Both the position numbers and the translations under genes were made by a program. A model generated the notes under the pieces. The model saw only the letters and a program-made list of their open reading frames with translations, did not search any database and was not told where the DNA came from. Shown here piece by piece: positions 44,333 to 61,265 of a DNA stretch of 64,000 nt. Every line of letters begins with the position of its first letter. Position 1 is the stretch's first letter. The stretch is from Ipomoea triloba (Eukaryota; Streptophyta; Magnoliopsida; Solanales; Convolvulaceae), in contig NC_044923.1 in the NCBI RefSeq assembly GCF_003576645.1, forward strand, positions 17,324,022-17,388,021, read 5' to 3'.

Positions 44333-45543
44333 TGTTAGGAACCCCGAGTTATTGATTTTGATGATACCAAACTATACGAGGAGACCCCTAACTTTTGTGT
44401 AAGTCTTTAGAATAGATCATGCTTTGTATCTTAGTCTTACAGGGTAACCGAATCCTTAGTATTTTTCGTTTACTAAGGATCTAAGTCTTACATACCGAAG
44501 TCGTGAAGACTTAAACCGAAGAGTAATCTATCCGAAGAGTTGAAGATGCGAAGAAACGAAGACTTGGAGAACCGAAGACTGGGATCTTAGGTCAAAACAC
44601 GGAAGGGCCAAGCTTTTATGACCGAGCAATCAAAAGTGTGATTGACTCGAGGAGATTAAGAGAAATGATAAGGTCAATCATTCTCTCTCACAACCAAGGC
44701 AAAGACATTCTCTGATAAGTTGTCTTGTCCACTGCCTTAAGAATGGGTATAACTGAATGACATTTTGGGTCCTATGCAACGATCCCAAGGAGCATTTAAT
44801 GATTGTCACCTTTTTGAGGGACAAAAGACAAATTGTCCTTGCACAAAAGTGGACAAACGGCTAGAAAGTACTGACATTCTGAAAAAGAAGAGAACACTAC
44901 CCATTGGATATTACACACTGGACAATAGGTTTTGAATTTCATTTTTCCCTCCAACGGATCTGAAATTCCACCTATAAATACCCTTGTCCCATCTCACTTT
45001 GACAAGGTTGAAATACGCGAAATATTGTCATTCAAGTGAAAAATTTTCAGTGTGATATTCATAAAGCTTACAAGTGATATTCAGATCTCATTAGAAGTTC
45101 TTGTGTGATTAAGAAGTTGATCAAGGAAGCAAAGAACAAGAATTTCAAGTTGGAGAATCATCACAATCTTTCAACCATCTCTACAAGTGAAGTAGAAAGA
45201 GGGGGAGTAAACTTGGAAGAAGTTGAAAAGCCTACAACAACAAGGCTGCCGGGCTTAGTGATCAAAGGAGCTTGTTGTAACGGAGATTGTACTATAAAGG
45301 AGATTATAGTGCAAACCTTCACGTGTTGTGAAGAAGAGTGGAGTAGGCTTAGTTACGCATTGCATTGCATATATCATCGCAAACTTAATACTTTCAAAGA
45401 AAATCCTAAGTGCAAAGTAAAGATAAAACTTGATATACTCTTTCCGCTGCGTTTATCTCTTTAGTCAAAAAGTTTTCAAAAACCTCTTGTGAGTCTATTC
45501 AACCCCCCCTTCTAGACTCATATCGCTACCATCGGGACCAACA
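44333..45543 (+). repeat. 5' LTR of the inner element
   Basis: 1211 bp, starting TGTTAGGAACCCC and ending ACCAACA. It holds a TATA box (TATAAATA, 44973-44980). The frames inside it are incidental. Confidence 0.9.
44973..44980 (+). promoter_or_regulatory. LTR TATA box
   Basis: TATAAATA in the 5' LTR, matched at 58939-58946 in the 3' LTR; the likely core promoter for the genomic RNA. Confidence 0.65.
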
Positions 45544-45545
45544 AG

Positions 45546-45557
45546 TGGTATCAGAGC
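45546..45557 (+). promoter_or_regulatory. Primer binding site, initiator-Met tRNA
   Basis: TGGTATCAGAGC two bases after the 5' LTR end, complementary to the 3' end of plant initiator-Met tRNA. Confidence 0.9.
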
Positions 45558-45644
45558 AAGTTACCTTGAACGGTGAACACTCTGTGTATACTGCCTGGTG
45601 ATCCTTTTTGAAAAATTTATCAAAATATTTTCAAACTTTGCACT

Positions 45645-48050
45645 ATGTCTAAAATGGAACATCATAGGCATTTTCTTATGTTTAACTTGGACAAGTTTGA
45701 TGATTGGAAAGTGCGCATGCAGGCTCACTTGTCTGCCATGCATGATGAGATGTGGGACGTGATAACTATTGGACCCATCCAGATACTACAAGTGAACCCC
45801 AATCGTGTTGCTACCGATCCGACATCACCAGAAATGATTCCAAAGGAGAAATCCTTGCTGACTACCGAAGAGAGAACCCGAGTAAATCTCGACAATATAG
45901 CCAAGGATATACTCTACAAGGCTTTGGACGAATCATTGTTCCCGAGAGTAAGAAAGTGCAAGACTACTAAAGAAATCTGGGATGTACTTATGCTCATAGG
46001 TGATGGAGACGAACAAGAGAAGGAGAACAAGCTAACCATTGCCATGAAGAAGTTTGAAGATTTCAAACTCAACCCAAAGGAGTCCATAACTGAAATGGAA
46101 GCTCGGTTCATAAAATTATTGATGGAAATCAATGATCTTGATGAGAAAAAGCTAACACAAAAGGAGATAAGCTTGAAGATTCTCCGAGGACTACCCAAAA
46201 GCTGGGAAATGAAAGTAGTAGCCATGCGAGATCATAGAGACCTCAAGACAACGAGCACTACTAAGATCTTTAGTGATCTGAAAGCCTACGAGTTCGAGAA
46301 GGAAGCTCAAAATGATGAAGAACCTGAAACGAGAAACATAGCCTTAGTTGCAAATCATCAACCTTCATCATCAACACCAAGGTCGAATACTAACCCCTCA
46401 TCTGATTTTTTCACTGACGACCAGCTTGCTTTGTTCATGAGAAGGTTCAAAAGATTCATGCGAAAGAATCAATCCTATGATAACTCTGACAAGACGAGAA
46501 GAATGAAGTATCGAAGCAATGACAAGGCTAGCGGATCCAGAACACATGAGAAGGATGAAATACAAGTGCTATGTTATAACTGCCGAAAACCTGGACACTT
46601 CAAAGTCGAATGTCCATATCCCATCGTCAAGAAGCATCCGGACGAGCACAACTACAAGAAGAATTTGGGAAATTATCACAACCCGAAGAGTGCATCAAAT
46701 GATGCTGACGAAGAGCCAAACAAAAACCAGAAGAATGATAGGCGAAGGAAGGCTCTAGCTGTAGAAGAGAAGTCAGGAGAAAAGAACGACGAGTCATGCA
46801 CATCCAGCTCTAGTTTAGAAAGTGACAGTTCGGAAGATGAGAAAGGACTACTGTGTCTTTTCAATCAAGAGGACTCAGATGAAGAGTTGTGCCTTATGGA
46901 TGATGAAGAAGAGGTAACTTCACAAAACCACTCTTCTAATTATAGTTCCGAATCCACATATCATGAAAACCCTAAGGAAGCATTTGAAAGAATGATGAAG
47001 AGTTTTGATGGTATTGAGGATTCACACTTAAAACTCAAAGAAGAGAATGCCAAGCTATTGGCAGAAAGACAAGATCTCGAGGACTTAAGGTCCAAAAATG
47101 CTGAGATGCTTGAATCTATAAGCCAGCTTGAGAAGCAAGTTCATCTTCTTGAGGAAGAGTGTAAAGCGAAGGATGATAGAGAGCAAAACTTGCGTGCGGT
47201 ACTTGCGACATTTACAAATTCATCTAGATTAATGGATCGAATGGTAGATGATCAAAGACCATCAGGGAGTAGAACCAGACTCGGCTATAACTCCAGCTCT
47301 TGTCAACATGTTCTCTTAACACGACCAACTGACCCTTCTACTAGTGGAGGTTTAAGCTCCGTCTTTGTCCAAGGACAAATTGAAAATCTTGAGCCAGTGA
47401 TTAACGCCACAAATGGAACAGAACCACAATCAACGAGTCGATCTAATGATTCGACTGAAACATGTATTGTGGAACCTACGAGAGGGGATTTCCAAAACGG
47501 TAACCCGAGAAGTCATCAGACCCCTCGGTATTGACCTCGCGTACCGAACCATCACGGTCGTATCGCAAATGGTCAACCACTTGGGAATAACCAATCTAAA
47601 GGGAAACTCCAAGGCAATAAGAGGCAACATTACTCACAGAGGCAACGCAAGGATATGCCTCAGGGAAGACCGAACTCTTACCCGAGTAATGTCAAGAATT
47701 TCAAAAAGTTCCCTAGCAAGCATAGAGGTGGAGAAGGTACTCGATATCCGAGTGATGAGGACTGGCTTATGGATTATGAACCAATGACGAGAGCAAAGTT
47801 TCTGCTCCATCATAGACATAAACAGACCTTATACACTAGAGTTAACACGAATAAACAAACACCTTCTCTTCAAAAGGTTTATTCACCGAAGTCACCTCAA
47901 GCCTACTATGCTATCCCTTATGATTATCGCGTGTTTAATGGGTATCGTGGACCGAGGATGAACCTTACGAGTTCTAGGTATGCATGGATGCCCAAGCTCA
48001 CCGCTAACCGACAAGGACCCAAGAAGGTATGGGTACCTAAAAATACTTAA
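45645..48050 (+). pseudogene. Inner element gag (zinc knuckle, coiled coil), interrupted by one TGA
   Basis: The frame is open for 629 codons from the ATG at 45645 to a TGA at 47532-47534, then open in the same frame to TAA at 48048-48050. The N-terminal third is a copia-type Gag (WKVRMQAHLSAM, MEARFIKLLMEI, ILRGLPKSWEMKV). The zinc knuckle CYNCRKPGHFKVEC is near residue 310, and a strong coiled coil follows around 460-520. The tail is basic and rich in R, Q and N. Gag forms the particle and binds RNA. The extended C-terminus with coiled coil is a Sirevirus habit. Whether the TGA is a mutation or a real Gag end is unknown. Confidence 0.8.
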
Positions 48051-48057
48051 TCTTTGA

Positions 48058-48417
48058 ATGCAGGGAAACAGGACCATCTGGTATGTAGATAGCGGTTGCT
48101 CAAGACATATGACTGGAGATAAATCAGAACTGAGCAATTATAAAGCGAAGAATGGTCCTAAAGTAGTCTTCGGTGGGAACTCAAGTGGACGAACTATGGG
48201 TACCGGAGATGTTATGAAGAATGGTTTAATCATCCAAGAAGTCTCATATGTTGAAGGATTAAAGTTCAATCTTTTAAGCACAAGTCAGTTTTGTGACAAA
48301 GGATACAGAGTTATATTCTCACGAGATCTATGTCAAGTTATCTCAGAGCTATCTCATGAAGTTGTATTGACAGCAAAACGAAGAAAGAATTGTATGTTTT
48401 CACGTGGGAAACAGTGA
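48058..48417 (+). pseudogene. Inner element aspartic protease region
   Basis: The frame is shifted by one relative to gag. TIWYVDSGCSRHMTG carries the catalytic DSG triad. The frame follows a TGA and ends at TGA 48415-48417; the pol sequence carries on in another frame from about 48385, so a frame change breaks the polyprotein here. Confidence 0.8.
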
Positions 48418-49703
48418 GACCAAATACCTGCCTAGTCGCCAAAAGTAAGAGAGATCTAAGTTGGGAATGGCATCATAAACTCAATCATCTCAACTTCAAG
48501 GCCATCAACAAGCTTGCAAGAAAGGAACTGCTTGAAGGATTACCGAACGTAATCTATGACAAGGATAAAGTATGTGAAGCATGTCAAAAGGGAAAGCAGA
48601 TCAAGTCTTCGTTCAAAACGAAATCTCTTAACACCAATGCAAGGCCATTAAGTCTACTCCATATGGACTTATTTGGACCAGTTGATCCAGTTAGTCTAAG
48701 CAGGAGAAAGTACACTCTTGTGGTAGTAGATGACTACACAAGATATACATGGACATCGTTTCTAAGAAAGAAGAATGAAACTGAGAAAGTCCTTCCAAAC
48801 TTGCTCCGAAGACTTCAAATCGAAAAGGATCTGAGTATTGTCAAAATCCGGTCTGATCGAGGAACTGAATTCGTAAACAAAGTCATTCAGGATTTCTGTG
48901 GACAACACGGTATACTACATCAGCTTTCAGCAGTAAGAACTCCTCAACAGAATGGTGTAGCTGAGAGACGCAACAGAACCCTCAAAGAAGCAGCAAGATC
49001 CATGATTGCTTTCTCAGGCTTACCTAAACGGTTTTGGGTCGAAGCTATAAACACTGCTTGCTACACTCAAAATAGATCTCTTATTCATAAAGATCATGGA
49101 GCTACACCTTACGAACTCTGGAAAGGCAGAAAACCTATTGTAAAATACTTTCATATATTTGGAAGTAAATGCTTCATCCACAACAACGGGAAATCACATC
49201 TAAAGGCTTTTGATGAACGTGCCGATGAAGGAATATTTATGGGATATTCTGAAAAGAGTAAAGCCTTTCGAGTACTGAACAAGCGAACCATGGTGATAAA
49301 AGAATCAATACACGTAGTCTTCGACGAACCATCAAAAGAGGGCGTGGTGATCTCTGACAGACAAACTGATGAAGAAGCGAAAGATAGAGAAATCGAAGAA
49401 CTATCCGAAGGATCAGAATCAGAAGACGACGATTATCCACTCTTTCCAAATTTTCCACCGAATACTTCATCTCAAACCGAAGTATTACCGAATGATGGAA
49501 ATGAGCCAATAATTCAACAAGATGGAAGCAATCAAGGCGAACCCTTTATCGATGAAGGAACACCTCCTTCCACTTTTCAACCGGATCTAAAATGGTTGAG
49601 AAATCATCCTCAAGATCAAATCATCGGTGATATACATGATAATGTACGAACTCGTGCATCCATTCGGGAATGCATGATGGAATGTTTTATATCTCAAAAT
49701 TAA
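48387..49703 (+). pseudogene. Inner element integrase
   Basis: It begins with the pre-integrase zinc-binding region (WHHKLNHLNFKAINK, then VCEACQKGKQ), followed by the DDE core (HMDLFGPV, VVVDDYTRYTW, RSDRGTEF, QNGVAERRNRTLKE) and the long variable C-terminal part ending in acidic linker sequence. A TAA at 49701-49703 separates it from the RT, which continues in the same frame. It would insert the cDNA copy into chromosomes. Confidence 0.85.
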
Positions 49704-51226
49704 CCAAAGACCGTCGAAGAAGCACTGAATGACTCGGACTGGGTCATTGCCGTGCAAGATGAACTACATCAATTTGAGAGAAATGATGTATGGGAACTGG
49801 TTCCACGACCAACTCATCAAAACGTCATTGGAACCAAATGGGTTTTCAGAAACAAGATGAATGAGCAAGGAGTCATTGTTAGGAACAAGGCTCGGTTAGT
49901 TGCAAAAGGATACTGTCAGGAAGAAGGGATCAATTTTGATGAAACCTTTGCTCCTGTTTCTAGACTCGAAGCCATAAGGATCTTTCTAGCATATGCTGCA
50001 TGGAAAGACTTTAAAGTCTATCAAATGGATGTCAAAAGTGCCTTCTTAAATGGGCTTTTGGAAGAAGAAGTATACGTCGAGCAGCCCCCAGGTTTTGTCT
50101 CTGAAGTCGGGATGGATAAGGTCTATAAACTCAAAAAGGCTTTATATGGTTTAAAACAAGCTCCAAGGGCTTGGTATGACACCTTATCATGCTTTCTTAT
50201 AAGCTGTGGATTCACGAAAGGGATAGTTGACAAAACCCTTTTTAGAATAAAAATGGAGATCATATCCTGTTGGTATAGATATATGTAGATGACATCATCT
50301 TTGGAAGTACCGATTCGGATCTATGTGAGAAATTCTCAAAACTCATGCAAGGAAAATTTGAGATGAGCATGATGGGAGAATTAAATTACTTTTTGGGTCT
50401 TCAAGTCAAACAAGAACGAAATGGGATTTTTATCAATCAAGCAAAATACACCAAGGATCTCATCAAGAAATTTGGAGTCGATGGGAAATCCTCAGTTAAA
50501 ATACCCATGAACACTTCGTTACGAATGGATATCGATAACGACGGGAAGGATGTAGATCAGACGAAGTATAGAGGAATCATCGGTTCTCTATTATATCTTA
50601 CAGCCAGTCGACCAGACATATCATTTGCTGTAGGGGTATGTGCTCGGTTTCAAGCCAATCCGAAGGAAAGTCATTTGAGTGCTGCCAAAAAGATACTAAG
50701 ATATCTAAAAGGGACTCAAAGTGTGGGACTTTGGTACCCGAGGAGTGACACCTTCGATTTAGTTGGATATTCTGACGCAGATTTTGCTGGTTGTAAAATT
50801 GATCGAAAAAGCACATCAGGGACATGCCAATTCTTAGGGGGAAGGCTTGTCTCTTGGTTTAGCAAAAAGCAAAATTCTATTGCTACAAGCACGGCTGAAG
50901 CCGAATACATAGCGGCTGGTAGTTGTTGTGCACAAATATTGTGGATGATGCAACAACTCAAGGACTATGGCGTATCTGCCAAAGAAGTAAGCATTATGTG
51001 TGATAACACAAGTGCTATCGCCATAACCCAAAATCCTGTGTTACACTCAAGAACCAAGCATATTGATATAAAATATCACTTCATTAGAGACCATGTGGAG
51101 AAAAAGGATATCAAACTTGAGTATGTGAATACCGAAGACCAGCTTGCGGATATTCTCACGAAACCGCTTGCCGAAGCAAGATTCTCTAACTTGAGGCATG
51201 AACTCGGTATGATCGAGATGAATTAA
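49704..51226 (+). pseudogene. Inner element reverse transcriptase and RNase H, one frameshift
   Basis: The first frame (to 50288) has [42 protein letters not shown] and [13 protein letters not shown] frame change falls at about 50265-50280, just before the catalytic YVDD (50282-50293), which lies in the second frame. That frame carries the RT end and RNase H (GYSDADFAG, STSGTCQFLGG, ATSTAEAEYIA, ADILTKPL) to TAA at 51224-51226. Catalytic residues are present, so only the frame is broken. Confidence 0.85.
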
Positions 51227-51389
51227 TGAAGAGACAATTGAATCGATCCAAAATTGAAGGGACATATCAGTTATGACATCTTGAAATTAATGCTCATCAG
51301 AATTAGAAGTTCACGGATTCATATTAATTGATAAGCTCAGAAATCTTGGACGGTTGCAACTTTGATTGGTCACGTCAAATGGATCTCAG

Positions 51390-51421
51390 CCAATCACAAA
51401 GCCACAATCTCTCTATAAATA
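51390..51421 (+). promoter_or_regulatory. CCAAT and TATA motifs before the first accessory ORF
   Basis: CCAAT at 51390-51394 and TATAAATA at 51414-51421 stand about 70-100 bp upstream of the ATG at 51490. A TTTTGTAG acceptor-like site (AG at 51486-51487) lies directly before the ATG. Either an internal promoter or a spliced sub-genomic RNA would place this ORF first on a transcript. Confidence 0.4.
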
Positions 51422-51489
51422 GATCACAACCGAGGAAGGAAGAGGTATCCTAACACCTAATCCTTTGTGTTGTCTTCTATTTTGTAGGA

Positions 51490-52113
51490 ATGGATAAAGG
51501 GAAGGGCAAGAAAGCGTGTTCTAAAGAGAAACCCGTCAAGAAAAGGTTCTCCTTTCGGTTGTTGTTGAAAGAAGGCACTAGCAAACTCAACAAGTTGAGA
51601 GAGGAAAAGGGAGAACCACTCCAAGGTGACACATCTGCACATCCTCTAGAAGTCTCTGACTCGGATTCTGAGGATTTCGTGCCCAAGCCACCAACCATGT
51701 CAGTTCCAGGCTTCTATTCTAAAGGTTTAGCTCCACCTAATGAGGAACCCTTCTGGCCAAGGCTAACTCCTCCACCTTCCATGAACGATATTGGAGATGA
51801 TGCCTGGAATGACATCCAAGGATGGTACCAACGGAATCAGGCTCCAAACCAGCCAGTGAATGCTGACCATGACGAGGACTATCTTCGCTACCTTGCGATG
51901 CTTGAACTAGATGATATATCTGACAAGTCCTCGGTGCTTGAAAATGAACCTGGTTATGGACCCATGGCTCCATCTTGGATCCCTGACGCTGCCCCAAGTG
52001 CTCTACCAGCTCCAAGCCCTCCTACCACGGAGAGCAGCCAAGGACAAAGCCTTATGTCTACTGCCAATAGTAGGCATGCAAAGAATAAGGGCAAAGGCAA
52101 GGCAAGAAAGTAG
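51490..52113 (+). CDS. Accessory ORF 1 of the inner element, unknown function (207 aa)
   Basis: Intact 207-codon frame after the pol end. The N-terminus is strongly basic (MDKGKGKKACSKEKPVKKR), the middle acidic and proline-rich (SDSDSEDFVPKPP, EEPFWPRLTPPPSMND), and the C-terminus is a short basic tail rich in K and G. No signal peptide, membrane segment or enzyme motif is visible; low complexity suggests a largely disordered protein, perhaps nucleic-acid binding at its ends. It lies between RNase H and a later MULE insertion. I do not recognise it. In position it matches the extra ORFs of Sireviruses, some called env-like, but nothing here looks like an envelope protein. Confidence 0.5.
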   Translation: MDKGKGKKACSKEKPVKKRFSFRLLLKEGTSKLNKLREEKGEPLQGDTSAHPLEVSDSDSEDFVPKPPTMSVPGFYSKGLAPPNEEPFWPRLTPPPSMNDIGDDAWNDIQGWYQRNQAPNQPVNADHDEDYLRYLAMLELDDISDKSSVLENEPGYGPMAPSWIPDAAPSALPAPSPPTTESSQGQSLMSTANSRHAKNKGKGKARK

Positions 52114-52634
52114 TTGTCATGCCTTGTAACAAAATCAGGGTTGGGTTGGTCAGTCCAGTCTGTTATCTTGGATGTCACTTTGTTATCTCTTTTTAATGGA
52201 ACTATCTTTTGCTTGCGTAGTCTGTCATTCTCTTTTCCGAAGTATTAAAATTTTTACCGAAGAATGACAAACTCAATGAGTACCGAAGACTGATAAAGCA
52301 CAAAGCACATGTGATGACCGAACCCATACTGACCGAAGGATATAGCTACCGAATCCTTAACCCCGAAAACTCTCTATGTGGTTCTCGTGATCGAATGGTC
52401 AAATATGTATCGTGCTGAACAAGTTTCAGAGTGAACCTCACTTATAACCGTTCAACTTGAGAACGTGGGATCATGGTGATACACGTGTCGACGCCCTATT
52501 TGAAGTAAATGCCGAAGCATGCGCTCCAACTTCTCTGAACCGTCTGACATGAAAGGACAGGCCATCAAGGATGTGATGGTAAAATGAGTGCATTTCTCTC
52601 TCCTCATTAAATAGCTATTTCATCTTATGGGAAA
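52114..52634 (+). other. Untranslated stretch of the inner element
   Basis: Non-coding, with repeated accgaa(g/t) phrases also abundant in the LTR. It ends with TATGGGAAA, the target duplicated by the next insertion. Confidence 0.4.
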
Positions 52635-53476
52635 GAGTTAATACCACAAATGGTCCTCTGACTATTGGGGTAGTACTCCTTTTAGTACTCGACTTTCAAT
52701 TCGACCACAAATGGTTCTCTGAATTTCATTTTTGACCACAAATAGTCCTTTTGTTAAAATTTCTGTTAAACAGGTGTTAAATCTAGGGGTATTATCGTCA
52801 AATTGATATATATAATGTTCATAAAATAAAAATGTTTATAATTTTTCACCAACAAGCATAATTGAAACAATTAACAAATATAAATACTCATAAATAAAAA
52901 GACAATACACTTTATTCTCGTAATTATGCGTACAAAATTAAGATTTAATATTAGAGCTATCTATTTTAATTTAACCAACAGACTAAAATGGAAGATTTTT
53001 TTTAAAAAATCTTGCTTTCATCATTTTCATGGTTGTTCATACATGGTCGATTAATAATTTTCACTTTTCATTAATCGATCAAACATTTTGTTTGGGACAT
53101 GACTGAAAGCTGCTACAGTTGAATTAATATAATTAATCAAGTACAAATTGCGAACATTAATCATGGATTTTTATTTAATTTGTTCATTTATATAAGTTCT
53201 CACGTCCATTTTATTTTTATATTTATTAACTTAATGTTTATTAATGTTTGAAATTAATTATGTTGTCATATAATTCTAAAAAAGAACTAATCATAAGAAT
53301 ATTAATCAATTTGACGATATTACCCCTAGATTTAACACCTATTTAACAGAAATTTTAACAGAGGACTATTTGTGGTCAAAAATGAAAGTCAGAGGACCAT
53401 TTGTGGTCGAATTGAAAGTCGATGACTAAAAGAAGTACTACCCCAATAGTCAGAGGACCATTTGTGGTATTAACTC
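52635..53476. mobile_element. MULE-type element inserted between accessory ORFs
   Basis: An 842-bp element flanked by an exact 9-bp duplication TATGGGAAA (52626-52634 and 53477-53485). TIRs of about 170 bp start GAGTTAATACCACAAATGG. The AT-rich middle encodes nothing. A 9-bp duplication and long TIRs indicate a non-autonomous Mutator-like element. It is younger than the host retrotransposon. Confidence 0.85.
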
Positions 53477-53607
53477 TATGGGAAACTACCCTTACCAGTA
53501 CAAACCTCATATACGACTTTATGCCATTTTTGCCCCCTCATTAAAGGGCATTTTCGCTCCACTTTTTCTAAAATGACCTGATCCACCCGATCCACCATCT
53601 CTCACCA

Positions 53608-53614
53608 TATATAA
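53608..53614 (+). promoter_or_regulatory. TATA box before accessory ORF 2
   Basis: TATATAA about 100 bp upstream of the ATG at 53715, followed by a pyrimidine-rich, gene-like leader with an aaaaaccctaaaacc telo-box-like motif. Confidence 0.45.
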
Positions 53615-53714
53615 CCTCTTGTACCTCTTACTTTTTACCGTTTACCCTCCCAAAAAGCTTCTTCTACCCTCAAAAACCCTAAAACCTCTCCAAAAACACC
53701 AAAAGTTGGAAATA

Positions 53715-54701
53715 ATGTCATCATCTGAATCAAGTTCTTCGTTTGAAAGTTCAAGTTCCTCTTCCGATGAGGTTGCTAATGCTCATGCGCCACCGCCAAA
53801 ACCCTCACCCTCGCCGGAAAAGACATCGGCCTCTCAAGAATCTTTTAGACCACCACAGATCATAACCCGCCCATGTGAAGATGTGGAAGTTTTCAAGTTC
53901 TTCTCCACCGTTGTTAAAGGTCAGAAGTCAAACCATTGCATGGTTAAAGTCGGTTCGATGCTTGATGTCGACGGTTTTCTTGATAAAGTGCTTGACAAAG
54001 ACTTTGGAAGTCACGTTGTGAAGTGCCTTGAGGATGGTAATCTTTGCAAGTTTGTTACTTTTAAACATAAAGCTTGGTATCCCATTGATGTGACACAGTT
54101 CTACATTAATGCTGAAATACAAACTGTCAATGGCGTTCATGAAATTCACTCAGTGGTTAATGGTACTGAGGTTGTGATCACTCATGAAGACATTAGGAGA
54201 GTTTTTGACTTTCCTATCTGTGGGGATGGCTTCCATCCGGACTGCTCTGAGAAGAAATATAGCAGAAAGAAGATGTGGAAAAAGATACAACCCTCATCCT
54301 TTCCATCTATTTTGAAGAAAAAGATGCTGAAGCTGGACTATGAATTTGTCGTAGACATCTTGAATAAGATTGTTGAGAGCAAACAATCTGGGACTAATGA
54401 TATTTCTGACAAGAAGATGCGGATGTTGTGTGCACTTCTGGAAAATTACCCTGTTGATTGGTCAAGGGTGATTTTTAACTTTCTAGTGGATAATGTTCAA
54501 ACAGGTATTAATCCTATGACCAGATGGATTGTTAAAGTTCTTGGCTACGGATTCATGCTCAGTACTCTTCTGAGAGATAAGAAGGTGAAGTTGCGTATTG
54601 GAACTGCCTCACATAGAAATCATTATCACATGACCTCAAAGCCTCCTAATTACCTCAAGAGAAAGGCAAATGAACTGGAAGCTGCCTTGAGAAAAGAATA
54701 G
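53715..54701 (+). CDS. Accessory ORF 2a of the inner element: plant-transposon-protein-like domain (328 aa to first TAG)
   Basis: The start is the ATG at 53715 after a leader-like stretch. Residues 1-60 are Ser- then Pro-rich. From about residue 60 a globular domain follows: CKFVTFKHKAWYPIDVTQFY, then ITHEDIRRVFDFPICGDGF, then a helical part with MRMLCALLENYPVDWSRVIF and MTRWIVKVLGYGFMLSTLLR. This arrangement resembles the 'putative plant transposon protein' domain (PF20167 type) seen in extra ORFs of plant retroelements; I infer this from pattern only. The frame ends at TAG 54699-54701 but stays open beyond it. No membrane segment or signal peptide is seen. Confidence 0.5.
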   Translation: MSSSESSSSFESSSSSSDEVANAHAPPPKPSPSPEKTSASQESFRPPQIITRPCEDVEVFKFFSTVVKGQKSNHCMVKVGSMLDVDGFLDKVLDKDFGSHVVKCLEDGNLCKFVTFKHKAWYPIDVTQFYINAEIQTVNGVHEIHSVVNGTEVVITHEDIRRVFDFPICGDGFHPDCSEKKYSRKKMWKKIQPSSFPSILKKKMLKLDYEFVVDILNKIVESKQSGTNDISDKKMRMLCALLENYPVDWSRVIFNFLVDNVQTGINPMTRWIVKVLGYGFMLSTLLRDKKVKLRIGTASHRNHYHMTSKPPNYLKRKANELEAALRKE

Positions 54702-57680
54702 AAGAAATCTAAATCCAAATCGTCCAAAAGCTCAGTTGGACAGGGAGAACCTGAGATGGCTAAAGGTCATGGTTCGGAAGGATCCACGCACCAACCAAAG
54801 ACACAACCCGAACCATCAAAACCGAAGGCCTCCAAACATGATAAATTCTCAAAGCGCACCGAATCCTCATCCGAGGAAGAACCAGAAAAGTCCTCTAAAA
54901 AGCGCAAGGCAGGAAGTTTGGAAGCTGCCCAGAAGAAGAAGTTAAAGAAACACAAATCTAAACGATCTAAGAGTTCGGACGAGAAGGATCCCACCGAAGT
55001 CTCTGAAGGTCGCAAGACTGAAGGGAAGCAAGCCGAATCCTCCCATGTAGAAGAGGTGAAGGCATCAAAAGAGGTCACTAAGAAGAGGAAGGCCAAACAG
55101 CTTAAACGTCCGAAAAAGAAGCAAATGACTGATCAAGTTGACGAAGGAGAAGTGGAACATGAAACCCGATCAACTGCTGTCTTACCAGCAGAAGAGGAAC
55201 CGAGGGAAGCTCAACTTGAAGAATGTCACCGAGTTCTTCCTCCTCCTCTTGATCTTTCCAGGGAAGATACTGATGAGGAAGATCAAATGCCTCTTACTAG
55301 GCTATTGAAACCGACAACCCCTCAAATCGAATCACCCTCTGTACCATCTGTCTTGGAGTCCTTACCACCTCCCGAGCCTTTGGTTACTGAACCTGAAAGT
55401 CCCATTGCTCCCATGCCCAGAACACAACAGCTGGTAATCACTTTGCCACGTGAAAGAAATGAGTCAGGCTTCGAATCCACCATGATAGAAGATGAATCTG
55501 AGGGAGATGATACTGAAGTCTGTGATCAATCCTATCGACCAATGTCTGCGATAGTTCAACGACAAATCACAGAACATTTGTCTCCTTCCATGGCCCATAT
55601 AATGCTCGCTCTTGACTACATTCATCGACACCTCTTTTTGCAATGGCCGCGTGTGTCAACTATTCGGATTGAAGAAATTCCACCTGCAACAACCGAATCT
55701 GAAATTCCTGAATCAGCCCAGCAACTTATCCTCCATCCTGATTCCATTACTCAACAGATTAATGCCGATGCAGCCTTGGCTCAACAGTTGGCATATGAGG
55801 AATCTGAGGCTGAAATACCTCCTGCCGAAGCATTCATTGCTGAATCTTCTCACGAGGACATTTTGAGACAAGAACTCGCTCGAGTTTATAACTGGCAGAG
55901 GTGGCAAATGTCGAGTCTTCGAGTTATTGCAAGTACAATCAGCGAAATGGCCGAAGAGGAAGAATGGGCGCTGGACTGGATGGGCACACGATCTATTTTT
56001 GACGCCACCAGACCCGATGAAATAGAAAGAGTTTTTGCTGAAAAACTACAAGGACGAACTACTCGGTTTGGCAAGACTGTGGTTTTGAATGTTGGCTACC
56101 GAACTCCTCGGGAACGCCTTATGCTAGAAGACATGCAGATTGCCAAAATCCACAACATCTCTCGAGCGCAAACAGAGATAAGAGATCTTAAACCAGATGT
56201 TGGGCCGAGTCGTCAACAAGATGAAGATGATGCTGAGGATTCAGATTCTAATCAAAATCAAGGATGCCGTGATCAACATCATAAGAAGGATGATGATGAT
56301 GATGACAACGATGATCCATCTGGAAGTCATGCTCCCTCTTCCCGAGCTGTAAACCTTCCCAACACAAGAGTTCATACAACTTGTGCCAATGATGAATCTA
56401 ATCAGAACCATACCGATGAGCCGAGGTCTGCTCCCACCGAATCCATGGAAGCACAAATCCTGCTAAGTCCTAGTTCAGCCCGAGATGAAACAATGGAAGC
56501 ATCTCGAGGTGCGAATCATGATGGCTTGCAGATACTTGATGAAACAATGGTTACATCAGATCTTAATTTGGTTGATGTTGAGGTAGAAGTCTTTCCTGAC
56601 TACACTTCGGATGGAAACCTGGAAGCATCTAAAAGTGCAAGTCCCGAAAACTTACCCTCTCCAATCGACGACTTAAATCTTGCAGAAAGCCAAGAACTCG
56701 TCTTAGTTGAAGGTGAAAACATGGAAGCACCTTCCAAGGACAGTCATGGTCCATCTGCTGACTCATCCAAGTGCTCGGATTCTTCTGAGGTAATCCTTGA
56801 TACCTCTTCTGCTTTCACTTCTCTGTTGAATGCTATACAGGGATTAGCGAGGACTCAAGATTCACAGTTTAAATCTCTTAATGAGTCCATCACCAAAATC
56901 AAGAAGGATGTAAGAAGGCAGAAAAAGAAGTCCTCAAAATCTACCATTGATGAAAGACTTACTGCTCTTGAGAAGAAGATAGATACTGCTTTCTCTGAGA
57001 ATCTCATTTCTCTTGGATCCTTGAAGGACTCGGTAACTGAAATCAAGAAAATACAGCGTGATCTGGTTACAAAGCATGCCTTCATTAAGGAACGTCTTGA
57101 CTTATCCTACTCAAAGCTTGAAACTGTCTCCGAAAGCCAAAATGCAACAGCATCTCTCGTCTGTGAATTTGAATGGACTCTTAAAGAATTGCAAGTTTGC
57201 ATAAATCGTTTGAGTAACAAGGTTGATATTCTCATCGAAGTCAATGATGCCAACAAGGGGGAAGAGATGAAAGGAACGCCCCTGAACACTTGCAAAGGAA
57301 AGGAAATTGTCCTAAGGAATGATGATCAGGACAATGATGATATTTCACGACAAAGGAAGGCCATCCTGAATCTTAGAAAAACTCCATCTCTTTCACCATC
57401 TCCGAAGAGAACGCAAGATAAACCTACAAGTGGTGAACCGAGTTCTAAAAGGCAAAAGAAACAAGGCAAAGAACCGAAGCCAATGAATCGAAGAGTAAAT
57501 GGAGAACCTATCGAGTATGTTCCATACAAAGAAGGATCTGGAAAGAAATGGGAAGAATGCAACATTCCGCCTTTTTGGAACAAAAAGCAACCCATGGACA
57601 GGATGAATTTCTTAAGAGATCACAATGAAAGAATCTTTAAACAAAGGAAGAGAGACGAAGAGATCTTCCGAATTCAGTAG
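54702..57680 (+). CDS. Accessory ORF 2b of the inner element: long charged coiled-coil protein (same frame as 2a)
   Basis: It follows 2a directly in frame; the first ATG is at 54756 (974 codons). The first 130 residues are Lys/Ser/Glu-rich, nuclear-localisation-like (KKKLKKHKSKRSKS). A Pro/Glu-rich region follows, then a more ordered part (about 260-480), an Asp run near 510, and a coiled coil at about 690-840 (FKSLNESITKIKKDVRRQKK, LEKKIDTAFSENLISLGSLK). The C-terminus is basic. It ends at TAG 57678-57680 in CAG-TAG-GAA. I recognise no enzyme motif and no transmembrane segment. Structural or nucleic-acid-scaffold roles are guesses. Confidence 0.45.
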   Translation, partial: KKSKSKSSKSSVGQGEPEMAKGHGSEGSTHQPKTQPEPSKPKASKHDKFSKRTESSSEEEPEKSSKKRKAGSLEAAQKKKLKKHKSKRSKSSDEKDPTEVSEGRKTEGKQAESSHVEEVKASKEVTKKRKAKQLKRPKKKQMTDQVDEGEVEHETRSTAVLPAEEEPREAQLEECHRVLPPPLDLSREDTDEEDQMPLTRLLKPTTPQIESPSVPSVLESLPPPEPLVTEPESPIAPMPRTQQLVITLPRERNESGFESTMIEDESEGDDTEVCDQSYRPMSAIVQRQITEHLSPSMAHIMLALDYIHRHLFLQWPRVSTIRIEEIPPATTESEIPESAQQLILHPDSITQQINADAALAQQLAYEESEAEIPPAEAFIAESSHEDILRQELARVYNWQRWQMSSLRVIASTISEMAEEEEWALDWMGTRSIFDATRPDEIERVFAEKLQGRTTRFGKTVVLNVGYRTPRERLMLEDMQIAKIHNISRAQTEIRDLKPDVGPSRQQDEDDAEDSDSNQNQGCRDQHHKKDDDDDDNDDPSGSHAPSSRAVNLPNTRVHTTCANDESNQNHTDEPRSAPTESMEAQILLSPSSARDETMEASRGANHDGLQILDETMVTSDLNLVDVEVEVFPDYTSDGNLEASKSASPENLPSPIDDLNLAESQELVLVEGENMEAPSKDSHGPSADSSKCSDSSEVILDTSSAFTSLLNAIQGLARTQDSQFKSLNESITKIKKDVRRQKKKSSKSTIDERLTALEKKIDTAFSENLISLGSLKDSVTEIKKIQRDLVTKHAFIKERLDLSYSKLETVSESQNATASLVCEFEWTLKELQVCINRLSNKVDILIEVNDANKGEEMKGTPLNTCKGKEIVLRNDDQDNDDISRQRKAILNLRKTPSLSPSPKRTQDKPTSGEPSSKRQKKQGKEPKPMNRRVNGEPIEYVPYKEGSGKKWEECNIPPFWNKKQPMDRMNFLRDHNERIFKQRKRDEEIFRIQ

Positions 57681-58052
57681 GAAGAACAGAAGAGATTTGA
57701 GAAAGTCATGAAGGAACTCGAAGAAGCAAACAAGATAACCAAAGCAGCTGATGGACGAACCAAAATGAATGGCATTGCTCAAATTTTGACTGCCATGCAA
57801 CAAAGTTTCTCCGATGGAATGAATGCTCCCGAACTAATAGCATGGTGGGACTGGGGAGTTATAAGGGGAGAAAATCTTGGTGAAGTAGTCCAAAACTATC
57901 TGATGCTGAGGCTACACCATAAATATGCTTTCAAGATTGAAGGTCTCGACACTGTGAAAGCAAGGAAAGAAATCAACGATATGATCCAACTCCAAGAGTA
58001 TGAAATTTGGGAAAAAGAGAAGAAGAAGAAGACTGGTGAAAGCTCAAAATAA
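57681..58052 (+). CDS. Accessory ORF 2c of the inner element: C-terminal continuation after second TAG
   Basis: Same frame as 2a and 2b, open to TAA at 58050-58052. It continues the helical, charged composition (EEQKRFEKVMKELEEANK), then has a Trp-containing segment (MNAPELIAWWDWGVIRGENL) and ends KEKKKKTGESSK. The absence of any frameshift across 2a-2c suggests one original protein of about 1445 residues. Confidence 0.45.
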   Translation, partial: EEQKRFEKVMKELEEANKITKAADGRTKMNGIAQILTAMQQSFSDGMNAPELIAWWDWGVIRGENLGEVVQNYLMLRLHHKYAFKIEGLDTVKARKEINDMIQLQEYEIWEKEKKKKTGESSK

Positions 58053-58284
58053 GAAGAATTTCCTTTCTGTCTTTAATTTTGTCAGTTTTGCTTTTTGTAA
58101 TGATGTATGAAACTTATTAAAAATCAAAGTCTCCTCTCGTTTGGGATCAGCGTGTGTGTGTTATCTAGTTTTTGTCTTAATCCTCGTCTCAAATGTAAAA
58201 CTTCAACTATTCTGGCACACTTAATGAAAATCCTTTTGAGGATAAAGAAAGCCGAATAGAATGAATTTAGGGTGTTGAATCATC
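58053..58284 (+). other. 3' untranslated stretch before the polypurine tract
   Basis: Non-coding; no poly(A) signal stands out before the LTR. Confidence 0.4.
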
Positions 58285-58297
58285 AAAAAGGGGGAAA
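58285..58297 (+). promoter_or_regulatory. Polypurine tract of the inner element
   Basis: AAAAAGGGGGAAA immediately before the 3' LTR start (TG at 58299), as in Sirevirus-type copia elements. Confidence 0.85.
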
Positions 58298-58298
58298 T

Positions 58299-59310
58299 TG
58301 TTAGGAACCCCGAGTTATTGATTTTGATGATACCAAACTATACGAGGAGACCCCTAACTTTTGTGTAAGTCTTTAGAATAGATCATGCTTTGTATCTTAG
58401 TCTTACAGGGTAACCGAATCCTTAGTATTTTTCGTTTACTAAGGATCTAAGTCTTACATACCGAAGTCGTGAAGACTTAAACCGAAGAGTAATCTATCCG
58501 AAGAGTTGAAGATGCGAAGAAACGAAGACTTGGAGAACCGAAGACTGGGATCTTAGGTCAAAACACGGAAGGGCCAAGCTTTTATGACCGAGCAATCAAA
58601 AGTGTGATTGACTCGAGGAGATTAAGAGAAATGATAAGGTCAATCATTCTCTCTCACAACCAAGGCAAAGACATTCTCTGATAAGTTGTCTTGTCCACTG
58701 CCTTAAGAATGGGTATAACTGAATGACATTTTGGGTCCTATGCAACGATCCCAAGGAGCATTTAATGATTGTCACCTTTTTGAGGGACAAAAGACAAATT
58801 GTCCTTGCACAAAAGTGGACAAACGGCTAGAAAGTACTGACATTCTGAAAAAGAAGAGAACACTACCCATTGGATATTACACACTGGACAATAGGTTTTG
58901 AATTTCATTTTTCCCTCCAACGGATCTGAAATTCCACCTATAAATACCCTTGTCCCATCTCACTTTGACAAGGTTGAAATACGCGAAATATTGTCATTCA
59001 AGTGAAAAATTTTCAGTGTGATATTCATAAAGCTTACAAGTGATATTCAGATCTCATTAGAAGTTCTTGTGTGATTAAGAAGTTGATCAAGGAAGCAAAG
59101 AACAAGAATTTCAAGTTGGAGAATCATCACAATCTTTCAACCATCTCTACAAGTGAAGTAGAAAGAGGGGGAGTAAACTTGGAAGAAGTTGAAAAGCCTA
59201 CAACAACAAGGCTGCCGGGCTTAGTGATCAAAGGAGCTTGTTGTAACGGAGATTATAGTGCAAACCTTCACGTGTTGTGAAGAAGAGTGGAGTAGGCTTA
59301 GTTACGCATT
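58299..59310 (+). repeat. 3' LTR of the inner element, truncated
   Basis: 1012 bp. It matches 44333-45361 except for a 17-bp deletion near 59255; the last 182 bp of the LTR are missing where outer-element sequence begins. TATA box at 58939-58946. Confidence 0.9.
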
Positions 59311-61265
59311 CATCATCTCTTTCATGTACGATTCTTTCGTTCAACAACACCATTCGATTGAGGTGCATAAGGTGCAGTACGCTCGTGTACTATTCCAACA
59401 CTCGCACAGAAGTCACCGATAGGTACTTCGTACTCACCACCTCTATCGCTTCTAACCTTTTTAATCTTTCGATTAAGTTGGTTTTCCACTTCATCCTTAT
59501 AAAGAATGAATTTTTCCTTGGCTTCGTCTTTGCTCTTTAGCAAATACACATAGCAAAATCGTGTGCAATCATCAATAAACGTGATAAAATATTTATTACC
59601 ACCTCTCGTTTGAATCGATCTAAAATCGCACAAATCGCTATGTACCAAAGTTAGTGGCTCGGTCTCCCTTTCAACCGATTTGAAGGGAGTTTTCGTTAGT
59701 TTTGCCTCAACACAAATTTCATATTTATTTGTATTAACTTGAAAATTAGGGATATGGTTCATGCTAATTAATCTACGCATAGAATTGAAATTAACATGAC
59801 CTAGTCTACCATGCCACAAATTGGAAGACTCAAGCAAGTAAACGGAATTAACTTTGCTTTTATTGATAATCGGCATTACATTGAGCTTAAAAAGCCCGTC
59901 AGTTACATAACCCTTACCAACAAACATCCCTAACTTTGACAAAACTACTTTGTCAGATTCGAAGACCATCTTGAATCCATGCTTGTTCAACAACGAGCCA
60001 GAAACAAGATTTTTCCTAAGGTCCGGAACATACAAAACATTATTCAATGTTAGTTCCTTCCCGGAAGTCATCTTCAGAATCACCTTGCCCACACCCTCAA
60101 CATTGGACTGAGCAGAGTTTCCCATCCAGACCTTCTCGCCCTCAACGATCTCAAAGGTGCTGAACATCTCCCGGTTGCAGCATAGATGTTTTGTTGCACC
60201 GGTGTCGATGAACCACTCGCGCGGGTTGGAGCCCACCAGGTTCACCTCCGTGACCATAGCCGAAAGGCTAATCTCCGCCACTTTTTGGCTCATATCACCA
60301 ACCATGTTGGCTTTAGAACCCTTGTTCTTTTTCTTTGGAGCCTTGCACTCCATCGACTTGTGGCCCGTCTTGCCACAATTGTAGCATTTTCCTTGGAACT
60401 TGCCCTTGGAAACACCACCTTTCGGACCCAGCTTTTTCTTGGCCTTCTTGGAGCTTTGCCCATGCTCCACCACGTTGGCTTTGGCACCTCCCACGAGAGG
60501 TCCTCTTCCATCACTGGTCCTGTTTCCTTCCTCGACTTGGAGTCGCTGGATCAGGTCTTCCAGGCTCATCTCCTTCCGCTTGTGCTTCAGGTAGTTCTTG
60601 AAGTCCTTCCATCCCGGAGGCAGCAAGTGGATCATGGACGCCACTTGGAAGGCTTCACTAATCGGCATGCCCTCGTCACGAATCTCGTCAAAGAGTAATT
60701 GCAACTCTTCAACTTGACTCAGCACGGTTTTTGAATCCACCATCTTGAAATCAAACAACCTGCCAACAACAAATTTCTTGGCCCCGGTATCCTCGCTTCC
60801 GTACTTGTGGTCCAAAGCTTCCCACAGTGCCTTAGCCGTGCCAATTTTACGACAAACATCGTAAAGGGAGTCAACTAACCCATTCAGAATGTAGTTGCGG
60901 CAAAGGAAGTTAGAATCCTTCCAAAGCCCAACTGCCATTACTGACTGAGGGTCTTGTTCCTTCACCACTGGAACCGTCTCGGTCAAGAACCTTGACAAGT
61001 CGAGAGTAGCGAGGTAAAACAGCATCTTTTGCTGCCACCTCTTGAAAAATGCTCCCGAAAACTTGTCCGACTTTTCAGCCGAACCACTTGGTACCGTAGG
61101 TATCCTCATCGTGGGGATATACCCCTCCGAACTGACACCCCCTTGTGAACCTGCGTTCACTAGTGCCTGGGATTGTGCAACATTGTTGCCATTCCCACCG
61201 CTGTTGTTTTCGACAACATTAGGATTTTCATCCCCAAGGTTGGCTACTGGCAACACGTTTTCCAT
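59311..61265 (-). pseudogene. Outer copia gag, protease and integrase (5' part of polyprotein)
   Basis: ATG at 61265 (MENVLPV); 647 codons are open to 59322. A UBN2-type Gag covers residues 60-260, the zinc knuckle [14 protein letters not shown] is near 292-305, and the protease [13 protein letters not shown] near 350. The pre-integrase region [10 protein letters not shown] lies near 482. The integrase core shows [12 protein letters not shown] (about 565), [10 protein letters not shown] (about 605) and [13 protein letters not shown] at the end. One base is apparently missing just after this, giving a stop, and within a few codons the sequence meets the inner LTR. The rest of the integrase is deleted. 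Confidence 0.85.

What the first reader, a model, noticed from the sequence alone, without database searches (positions are those of the whole stretch)
51227..58284. Very large accessory region after pol in a Sirevirus-like copia element
About 7 kb (6.2 kb without the later MULE) separates RNase H from the polypurine tract. It holds a 207-codon ORF and a 1446-codon frame with an apparent plant-transposon-protein-like domain plus a long coiled coil. Extra ORFs in Sireviruses are known, but this is large, has two distinct genes, and shows no membrane segment or signal peptide, so an envelope role is unlikely. A DNA- or chromatin-associated role, or a captured host gene, is possible.
Basis: partly seen in the sequence, partly recalled or inferred. 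Interest (0 to 1): 0.75.

Follow-up and report, generated by a model that had tools for sequence, protein, structure and literature searches.

The report
Conserved two-gene module in plant retrotransposon
A plant jumping gene of the Sirevirus kind carries, after its copying genes, two extra genes that selection has kept working across its family, probably with promoters of their own, and that change faster than the rest; their job is unknown, but they are not passenger DNA.

Summary
Between the pol stop (51226) and the polypurine tract (58289) lie ORF A (51490-52113, 207 aa) and a long frame B (53715-58052, broken here by two stops), with a MULE-type insert (52635-53476) between them. In the same genome, 20 of 20 fetched copies (of about 37 places) carry A followed by B, and none shows the MULE. 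Pairwise dN/dS is 0.19 for A and 0.21 for B, against 0.11 for RNase H. Shifted frames give 0.95-1.64 and the non-coding linker 0.60-0.80. Passenger DNA is rejected. TATA boxes 76 and 107 bp before the start codons do not vary among copies. A sister family (RNase H 82-84% identical) has the same two-slot layout with TATA motifs, but its B protein is only about 30% identical and its small ORF is unrecognisable. B has no membrane segment. It has nuclear-type basic signals, a coiled coil and a sub-threshold PF20167 match, a family also reported in a sunflower Athila 3' ORF. Extra 3' ORFs are typical of SIRE elements, so this is a variant of a known kind. Best reading: a fast-evolving, probably nuclear accessory module belonging to the element itself.

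The parts
44333..59313 (+). SIRE-type Ty1/copia element, 3' LTR cut short, inserted in an older copia element of the other strand
   Evidence: LTR alignment and boundaries, Pfam gag/pol domains, flanking copia pieces
44333..45543 (+). 5' LTR, 1211 bp, ending CA before spacer AGTGG and primer site TATCAGAGC (45549)
45645..51226 (+). gag and pol, broken in several places in this copy
51390..51421 (+). CCAAT and TATAAATA before ORF A (TATA 76 bp before the ATG)
   Evidence: TATAAATA 19 of 19 rows, CCAAT 18 of 18 rows with letters; only CTATAWAWAG in the window
51479..51489 (+). 3' splice-site-like sequence directly before the ORF A start
   Evidence: TTTTG(C/T)AG in 16 of 19 rows, AG kept in 18 of 19
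51490..52113 (+). ORF A, 207 aa, open in this copy
   Evidence: dN/dS 0.19
52114..52634 (+). A-B linker with 8 CCGAA motifs and short words shared with the LTR
52635..53476 (+). MULE-type insert with long terminal inverted repeats and 9-bp target duplication; seen in none of 20 other copies
   Evidence: arms 92-94% complementary; duplication read; 13 of 20 copies show two alignment blocks overlapping by exactly 9 bases at the empty site
53608..53614 (+). TATATAA, 107 bp before the start of frame B
   Evidence: 20 of 20 rows, distance
53715..58052 (+). Frame B, 1445 codons plus stop, two in-frame stops in this copy
   Evidence: dN/dS 0.21; longer open frames elsewhere in the genome
54042..54587 (+). 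PF20167-like part of B (residues 110-291)
   Evidence: 11 of 14 relatives at E 0.1 or better
56790..57260 (+). Coiled-coil part of B (approximate limits)
   Evidence: heptad score, best 42-residue window at residues 785-826 of the 974-aa piece
58289..58296 (+). Terminal polypurine tract AGGGGGAA
58299..59313 (+). 3' LTR, cut short; identical to the 5' LTR at 1012 of 1012 aligned positions apart from one 17-base gap

Best explanation
The region is a selected two-gene accessory module belonging to a SIRE-lineage Ty1/copia family. Shown: A and B lie in the same order in the copies examined; both are under purifying selection; a sister family has the same layout with a homologous B protein. Inferred: both genes are expressed apart from gag-pol, most simply from internal core promoters (invariant TATA boxes), with splicing to the acceptor-like site before A as the alternative. 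Also inferred: B is a nuclear, self-associating protein (basic signals, coiled coil) acting on the element's own DNA or on host chromatin or silencing, and A is a small, mostly disordered partner. Their faster divergence than pol fits a contest with the host or a family-specific target.
For: 20 of 20 fetched copies with A then B. dN/dS: A 0.19 (0.13-0.26), B 0.21 (0.19-0.24), RNase H 0.11 (0.08-0.14). Open frames above 1400 aa at other B places. TATA boxes invariant in 19 of 19 and 20 of 20 rows and TATA motifs in all four slots of the two families. The leader of A diverges less (0.074) than the A-B linker (0.145). Sister B protein 28.6-30.4% identical over about 237 aa, E 5e-31 and 3e-31. B identity follows RNase H identity, Spearman 0.80 over 46 places. 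Basic nuclear-type signals, coiled coil, no membrane segment. A and B pieces lie side by side in an Ipomoea batatas protein model.
Against: No transcript, localisation or binding data. Each single TATA motif is not rare: 79, 151, 76 and 357 of 2000 shuffles have one. The copies fetched were chosen for having ORF A. Copy pairs are not independent, and the linker read as codons also gives values below 1 (0.60-0.80). Five of 64 close RNase H places had neither A nor B among the scored matches. Many single copies are broken (17 of 20 have a stop in the aligned part of B). The PF20167 match is below cut-off and is absent from the sister proteins at E 0.01. The structure model was unusable.
Confidence: 0.55

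Rival explanations
1. Frame B is the Sirevirus 'envelope-like' gene with a particle-associated or cell-to-cell role, its membrane part lost or unrecognised.
For: Same place as the ENV-like gene of Sireviruses. PMC3414828 (passages) says such genes share little beyond transmembrane and coiled-coil domains; B has a coiled coil. PMC2829016 describes repeated motifs upstream of ENV; a motif cluster lies upstream of B.
Against: No membrane-like stretch in A or the B pieces (highest mean 1.11). Basic nuclear-type signals in B.
Confidence: 0.15
2. The genes work in the element's own particles or integration complex, for example as chaperone, capsid partner or nuclear-import helper, with no effect on host chromatin.
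For: Strong purifying selection, basic segments and coiled coil. PMC7264820 (first of three parts read) reports the suggestion of a chaperone role for such proteins.
Against: Divergence several times faster than RNase H, not expected of a core replication partner. No direct evidence either way.
Confidence: 0.2
3. A and B are captured host genes or unrelated genes gained separately by different element families.
For: PMC6317226 (passages) leaves open independent acquisition for SIRE 3' ORFs. Both genes have their own TATA boxes, as captured genes might. The sister small ORF shows no similarity to A.
Against: B is homologous in the sister family. Identity falls in step with RNase H among close copies. 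TATA motifs stand before both slots in both families.
Confidence: 0.08
4. Passenger DNA without function.
For: Many copies are broken: 17 of 20 have at least one in-frame stop in the aligned part of B, 9 of 20 in A.
Against: dN/dS about 0.2 with shifted-frame controls of 0.95-1.64 and linker controls of 0.60-0.80. Present in 20 of 20 fetched copies. Homologous layout in a sister family.
Confidence: 0.02

Closest known systems
SIRE eORF-3'F (Neumann et al. 2019, PMC6317226; passages seen)
   Same: Sense ORF between pol and the 3' LTR of SIRE elements, reported in 74% of them; sequences fall into 19 dissimilar groups.
   Different: Here two genes, each with an invariant TATA box, a MULE in this copy, and a measured dN/dS. 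Which of the 19 groups B belongs to was not tested.
Sirevirus ENV-like gene, as in SIRE1 (PMC2829016, section 6 and passages; PMC3414828, passages)
   Same: Position, large size, coiled coil; an internal promoter was proposed for it.
   Different: No membrane segment seen; a second, small gene precedes it.
Athila 3' aORF(+) with PF20167 in sunflower (PMC11728184, section 2.5 read)
   Same: PF20167-type match in a sense ORF after pol; nuclear signals reported there.
   Different: That element is Ty3/gypsy and the ORF has 487 aa; here the match is below cut-off in a Ty1/copia element, in a frame of 1445 codons.
Medicago Mtr2/COPIA4 third ORF (PMC2533021, section read)
   Same: Large third ORF (over 790 aa) less than 1 kb downstream of pol, conserved among family members.
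   Different: One ORF reported; weak similarity to the SIRE1-8 ENV reported there; not compared here.
Retand antisense aORFs with Transposase_28 (PMC11963269, passages)
   Same: Long pol-to-LTR region with accessory ORFs; a regulatory or DNA-binding role is suggested there.
   Different: Ty3/gypsy, antisense, another domain.

Membership tests
Sirevirus (SIRE lineage, Ty1/copia) | Polypurine octamer exactly 10 bp before the 3' LTR | tested here: met
   AGGGGGAA at 58289-58296; the A-ending variant is the one given for ToRTL1 and Tnd-1 in PMC2829016
Sirevirus (SIRE lineage, Ty1/copia) | Several octamers clustered near the 3' LTR (about 4 per element, 83% within 0.5 kb) | tested here: not met
   AGGGGGAA only at 50836, 57256 and 58289; one within 0.5 kb of the LTR
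Sirevirus (SIRE lineage, Ty1/copia) | LTR end CA, spacer ATTGG or AGTGG, primer site TATCAGAGC | tested here: met
   CA-AGTGG-TATCAGAGC at 45542-45557 (rule)
Sirevirus (SIRE lineage, Ty1/copia) | Inverted repeat around the polypurine/LTR junction | tested here: met
   ATCATCAAAA and TTTTGATGAT read by eye; no chance test made
Sirevirus (SIRE lineage, Ty1/copia) | C-rich integrase signal near the LTR 3' end | tested here: inconclusive
   A run of seven C lies near 45505; the paper's aligned consensus was not seen
Sirevirus (SIRE lineage, Ty1/copia) | Position in an RT/INT tree | not tested
   no reference element sequences fetched
Envelope-like protein | Transmembrane segment | tested here: not met
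   highest 19-residue Kyte-Doolittle mean 1.11 over A and the B pieces; no dedicated predictor available
Envelope-like protein | Coiled coil | tested here: met
   heptad score 7 against a shuffle 95% point of 4 (home-made score)
PF20167 (Transposase_32) | Score above Pfam's curated cut-off (45 bits) | tested here: not met
   32.1 bits, E 1.4e-7; 11 of 14 relatives match at E 0.1 or better
Mutator-like element (nested insert) | Long terminal inverted repeats and 9-bp target duplication | tested here: met
   no transposase gene, so a non-autonomous type

The most novel reading that the evidence does not exclude
SIRE elements carry an old, vertically inherited two-gene, two-promoter accessory module that diverges several times faster than pol. 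It would work in the nucleus as a family-specific anti-silencing or targeting factor, comparable in role to the accessory proteins of VANDAL DNA transposons. The 'unrelated' 3' ORFs of different SIRE families would then be the same genes diverged beyond recognition.
Probability: 0.25. Interest if true: 0.75.

Novelty: new variant of a known kind. Interest (0 to 1): 0.55.

Why it matters
PMC6317226 leaves open whether the dissimilar 3' ORFs of SIRE elements evolved very fast or were acquired from different sources, and whether they have any function (passages). Here one genome gives a graded series: B proteins linked to pol fall from a median of 86.5% identity to about 30% in the sister family while the layout stays the same, and within close copies selection is strong. 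That favours fast evolution of a functional gene, and it can be tested in any plant genome.

Tried and rejected
Passenger DNA: rejected by dN/dS and copy structure. Chance ORFs: rejected by shuffles. Further copies of A or B within the window: none at E 1e-3. Solved structures: none for A at E 10; for the profile of the first B piece only one at E 0.82. Structure prediction: mean pLDDT 37.6 from a two-row alignment, so no fold search was run and the second job was not used. IMG/VR: no relatives of two B pieces or RNase H, no match to the junction pattern. GTDB contigs: none; the one pattern hit (L001) lies in a bacterial gene that looks like an ABC transporter and is chance. Protein database: one relative for the first B piece (P0001), only the window's own protein for the middle piece, one for A (P0003). 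Amino-acid-pattern selection test against P0001 alone: weak (3.9-14% of null draws reach it, depending on measure and bias); superseded. The sigma-70 scan is meaningless for a plant. Rfam: no match. A search for PF20167 across the own genome was asked nine times and never answered.
Full report
What is there. The window lies in a genome of 461,989,178 bases in 17 contigs, by size and contig number probably an Ipomoea (recalled, not tested). A copia element of the other strand (about 41661-62121) is interrupted by the element in question. The 5' LTR is 44333-45543; the 3' LTR starts at 58299 and is cut at about 59313, where part of the flanking copia integrase gene appears to be missing too. The two LTRs are identical at 1012 of 1012 aligned positions apart from one 17-base gap, yet gag, pol and frame B all carry breaks. 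The insertion is therefore young but was probably copied from an already damaged template and moved in trans (inference). Primer site, spacer, terminal polypurine tract and junction inverted repeat fit the Sirevirus description in PMC2829016. The clustering of several polypurine copies near the 3' LTR is not met, and an RT tree was not made.

The accessory region. ORF A (51490-52113) is open. Frame B (53715-58052) has two in-frame stops against a shuffle mean of 81.5. Between them sits a MULE-type insert, 52635-53476, with a 9-bp target duplication. None of the 20 fetched copies shows the insert; 13 of 20 show two alignment blocks overlapping by exactly 9 bases at the empty site, and one (L011) lacks the site altogether. 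ORF A DNA gave 45 matches in the own genome (40 of 119 candidates scored), at about 37 places outside the window. The 20 were chosen for having ORF A, so they say nothing about copies without it.

Selection. In 20 of 20 fetched copies A is followed by B in the same order, though in several part of B is missing, interrupted or beyond the fetched stretch. A has no in-frame stop in 11 of 20 copies; B has none in its aligned part in 3 of 20, one of which covers only 22% of the frame. A protein search with the first B piece gave 130 matches (122 of 1667 candidates scored), several inside open frames above 1400 aa, so uninterrupted copies exist. P0001, a 465-aa protein predicted from a public contig, is also open where the window has its first stop. 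Pairwise Nei-Gojobori dN/dS: RNase H 0.11 (0.08-0.14; 18 copies and the window), ORF A 0.19 (0.13-0.26) and frame B 0.21 (0.19-0.24; 20 copies and the window). Parts of B run from 0.15 (PF20167-like) to 0.30 (residues 851-1000). Controls: shifted frames of all three 0.95-1.64; the non-coding A-B linker read as codons 0.60, 0.80 and 0.71. So the method itself can give values somewhat below 1 without coding, but not near 0.2. Pairs are not independent; the intervals are bootstraps over codons.

How it may be expressed. The only CTATAWAWAG in the 64-kb window on either strand lies 76 bp before ORF A (1.25 expected in the window by chance). A TATATAA lies 107 bp before frame B. TATAAATA is unchanged in 19 of 19 rows and TATATAA in 20 of 20, window included. 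The 263-bp leader of A differs less between copies (0.074) than the A-B linker (0.145) or ORF A silent sites (0.217). An acceptor-like TTTTG(C/T)AG stands directly before the A start in 16 of 19 rows, so splicing is a live alternative. CCGAA motifs cluster in the linker upstream of B: 8 in 523 bp, 0 of 500 shuffles reach this, and 4-8 per copy. They are also above shuffles in gag-pol and in B, at lower density (3.0 and 3.9 per kb against 15.3). The linker shares three 11-mers with the LTR (2 of 500 shuffles reach this; the best of 91 coding windows has one), but at 9 and 10 letters some coding windows share as many or more.

Sister family. RNase H protein matches in the own genome (134 of 7267 candidates scored) fall into a close group and a group at 82-84% identity. 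Of 64 close places, 47 have a scored B match within 8 kb downstream on the same strand, and 12 of the other 17 have an A match within 1.5 kb; 5 have neither among scored matches. Of 27 sister-group places examined, none has a scored B match. That is not absence: two sister copies read downstream of pol (L036, L037) both have a 122-aa small ORF and a large ORF of 1045 or 1159 aa. The large ORF is 28.6 or 30.4% identical to the first B piece over about 237 aa (E 5e-31 and 3e-31), with shorter matches to the middle piece and, in one, to the last piece (41.5% over 53 aa). The small ORF has no significant similarity to A (best E 2.0). TATA-type motifs precede the sister genes by 46 and 115 bp. Over the four slots, 79, 151, 76 and 357 of 2000 shuffles hold such a motif, so no single one is striking but all four together are.

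Rate. Among 46 places, B identity follows RNase H identity (Spearman 0.80, 0 of 2000 permutations reach it), with median distance ratios of 3.9-5.6 by identity class. These identities are all to the window query and include decay after insertion; the dN ratio among close copies is lower, about 2.2 (0.053 against 0.024). The graded relation favours common descent with fast change over repeated acquisition; it does not prove it. P0003, an Ipomoea batatas protein model of 310 aa, is 38% identical to A over 95% of A, and its C-terminal part matches the middle of B (score 90 against shuffles of 46.5, SD 6.4, 0 of 1000), so A and B are neighbours there too.

What the proteins look like. A: no Pfam match at E 1 and no PDB match at E 10; charged and rich in Ser/Pro/Thr; basic start and end shared with P0003. 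The shared KKRFSFRL stretch recalls MARCKS-type effector segments; this is recalled and untested. B: Ser-rich start, PF20167-like part, a basic segment with nuclear-type signals, acidic stretches, coiled coil, no membrane segment. PF20167 scores 32.1 bits against a cut-off of 45; 11 of 14 aligned relatives match at E 0.1 or better; the two full-length sister proteins do not at E 0.01. The AlphaFold model was unusable.

Known or new. SIRE elements typically carry a sense 3' ORF (74%, 19 dissimilar groups; PMC6317226, passages). PF20167 was reported in a sunflower Athila 3' ORF (PMC11728184, section 2.5). An internal promoter for the Sirevirus ENV-like gene was proposed before, without one being conclusively identified (PMC2829016, passages). 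Searches for 'PF20167' and for 'Transposase_32' with 'retrotransposon' returned only the sunflower paper; 'putative plant transposon protein' returned two GWAS papers (listing only). I met no report of a two-gene, two-promoter SIRE module in the listings or in the parts of papers that I opened; the library holds open-licence papers only, and the supplementary tables of PMC6317226 were not seen.

Verdict. It is a variant of a known kind. The function is inferred, not shown.

Noticed in passing
window 44333-59313: LTRs without a single substitution in 1012 aligned positions, while gag, pol and frame B all carry breaks; suggests a damaged template moved in trans.
   Followed up: partly
window 44332 and 59313: The 3' end of the 3' LTR and part of the flanking copia integrase gene appear to be missing; no target duplication is seen.
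   Followed up: partly
RNase H places at 82-84%; L036, L037: Sister SIRE family with many open pol frames (often 1062 aa, up to 3209 aa) and identical small ORFs in the two copies read; looks recently active.
   Followed up: partly
window 41661-62121, minus strand: Older copia element with gag, integrase and RT pieces, split by the element described here.
   Followed up: partly
window 51538-51561 (ORF A residues 17-24): KKRFSFRL stretch shared with the Ipomoea batatas protein P0003; recalls MARCKS-type effector segments (recalled, untested).
   Followed up: no
L020 (G000:C14:8552500-8562400): Pol end and ORF A are present twice in tandem upstream of one frame B.
   Followed up: no
L036 231-260: In the sister family, too, an acceptor-like TTTCTTTCAG follows the TATA motif before the small ORF (read by eye).
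   Followed up: no
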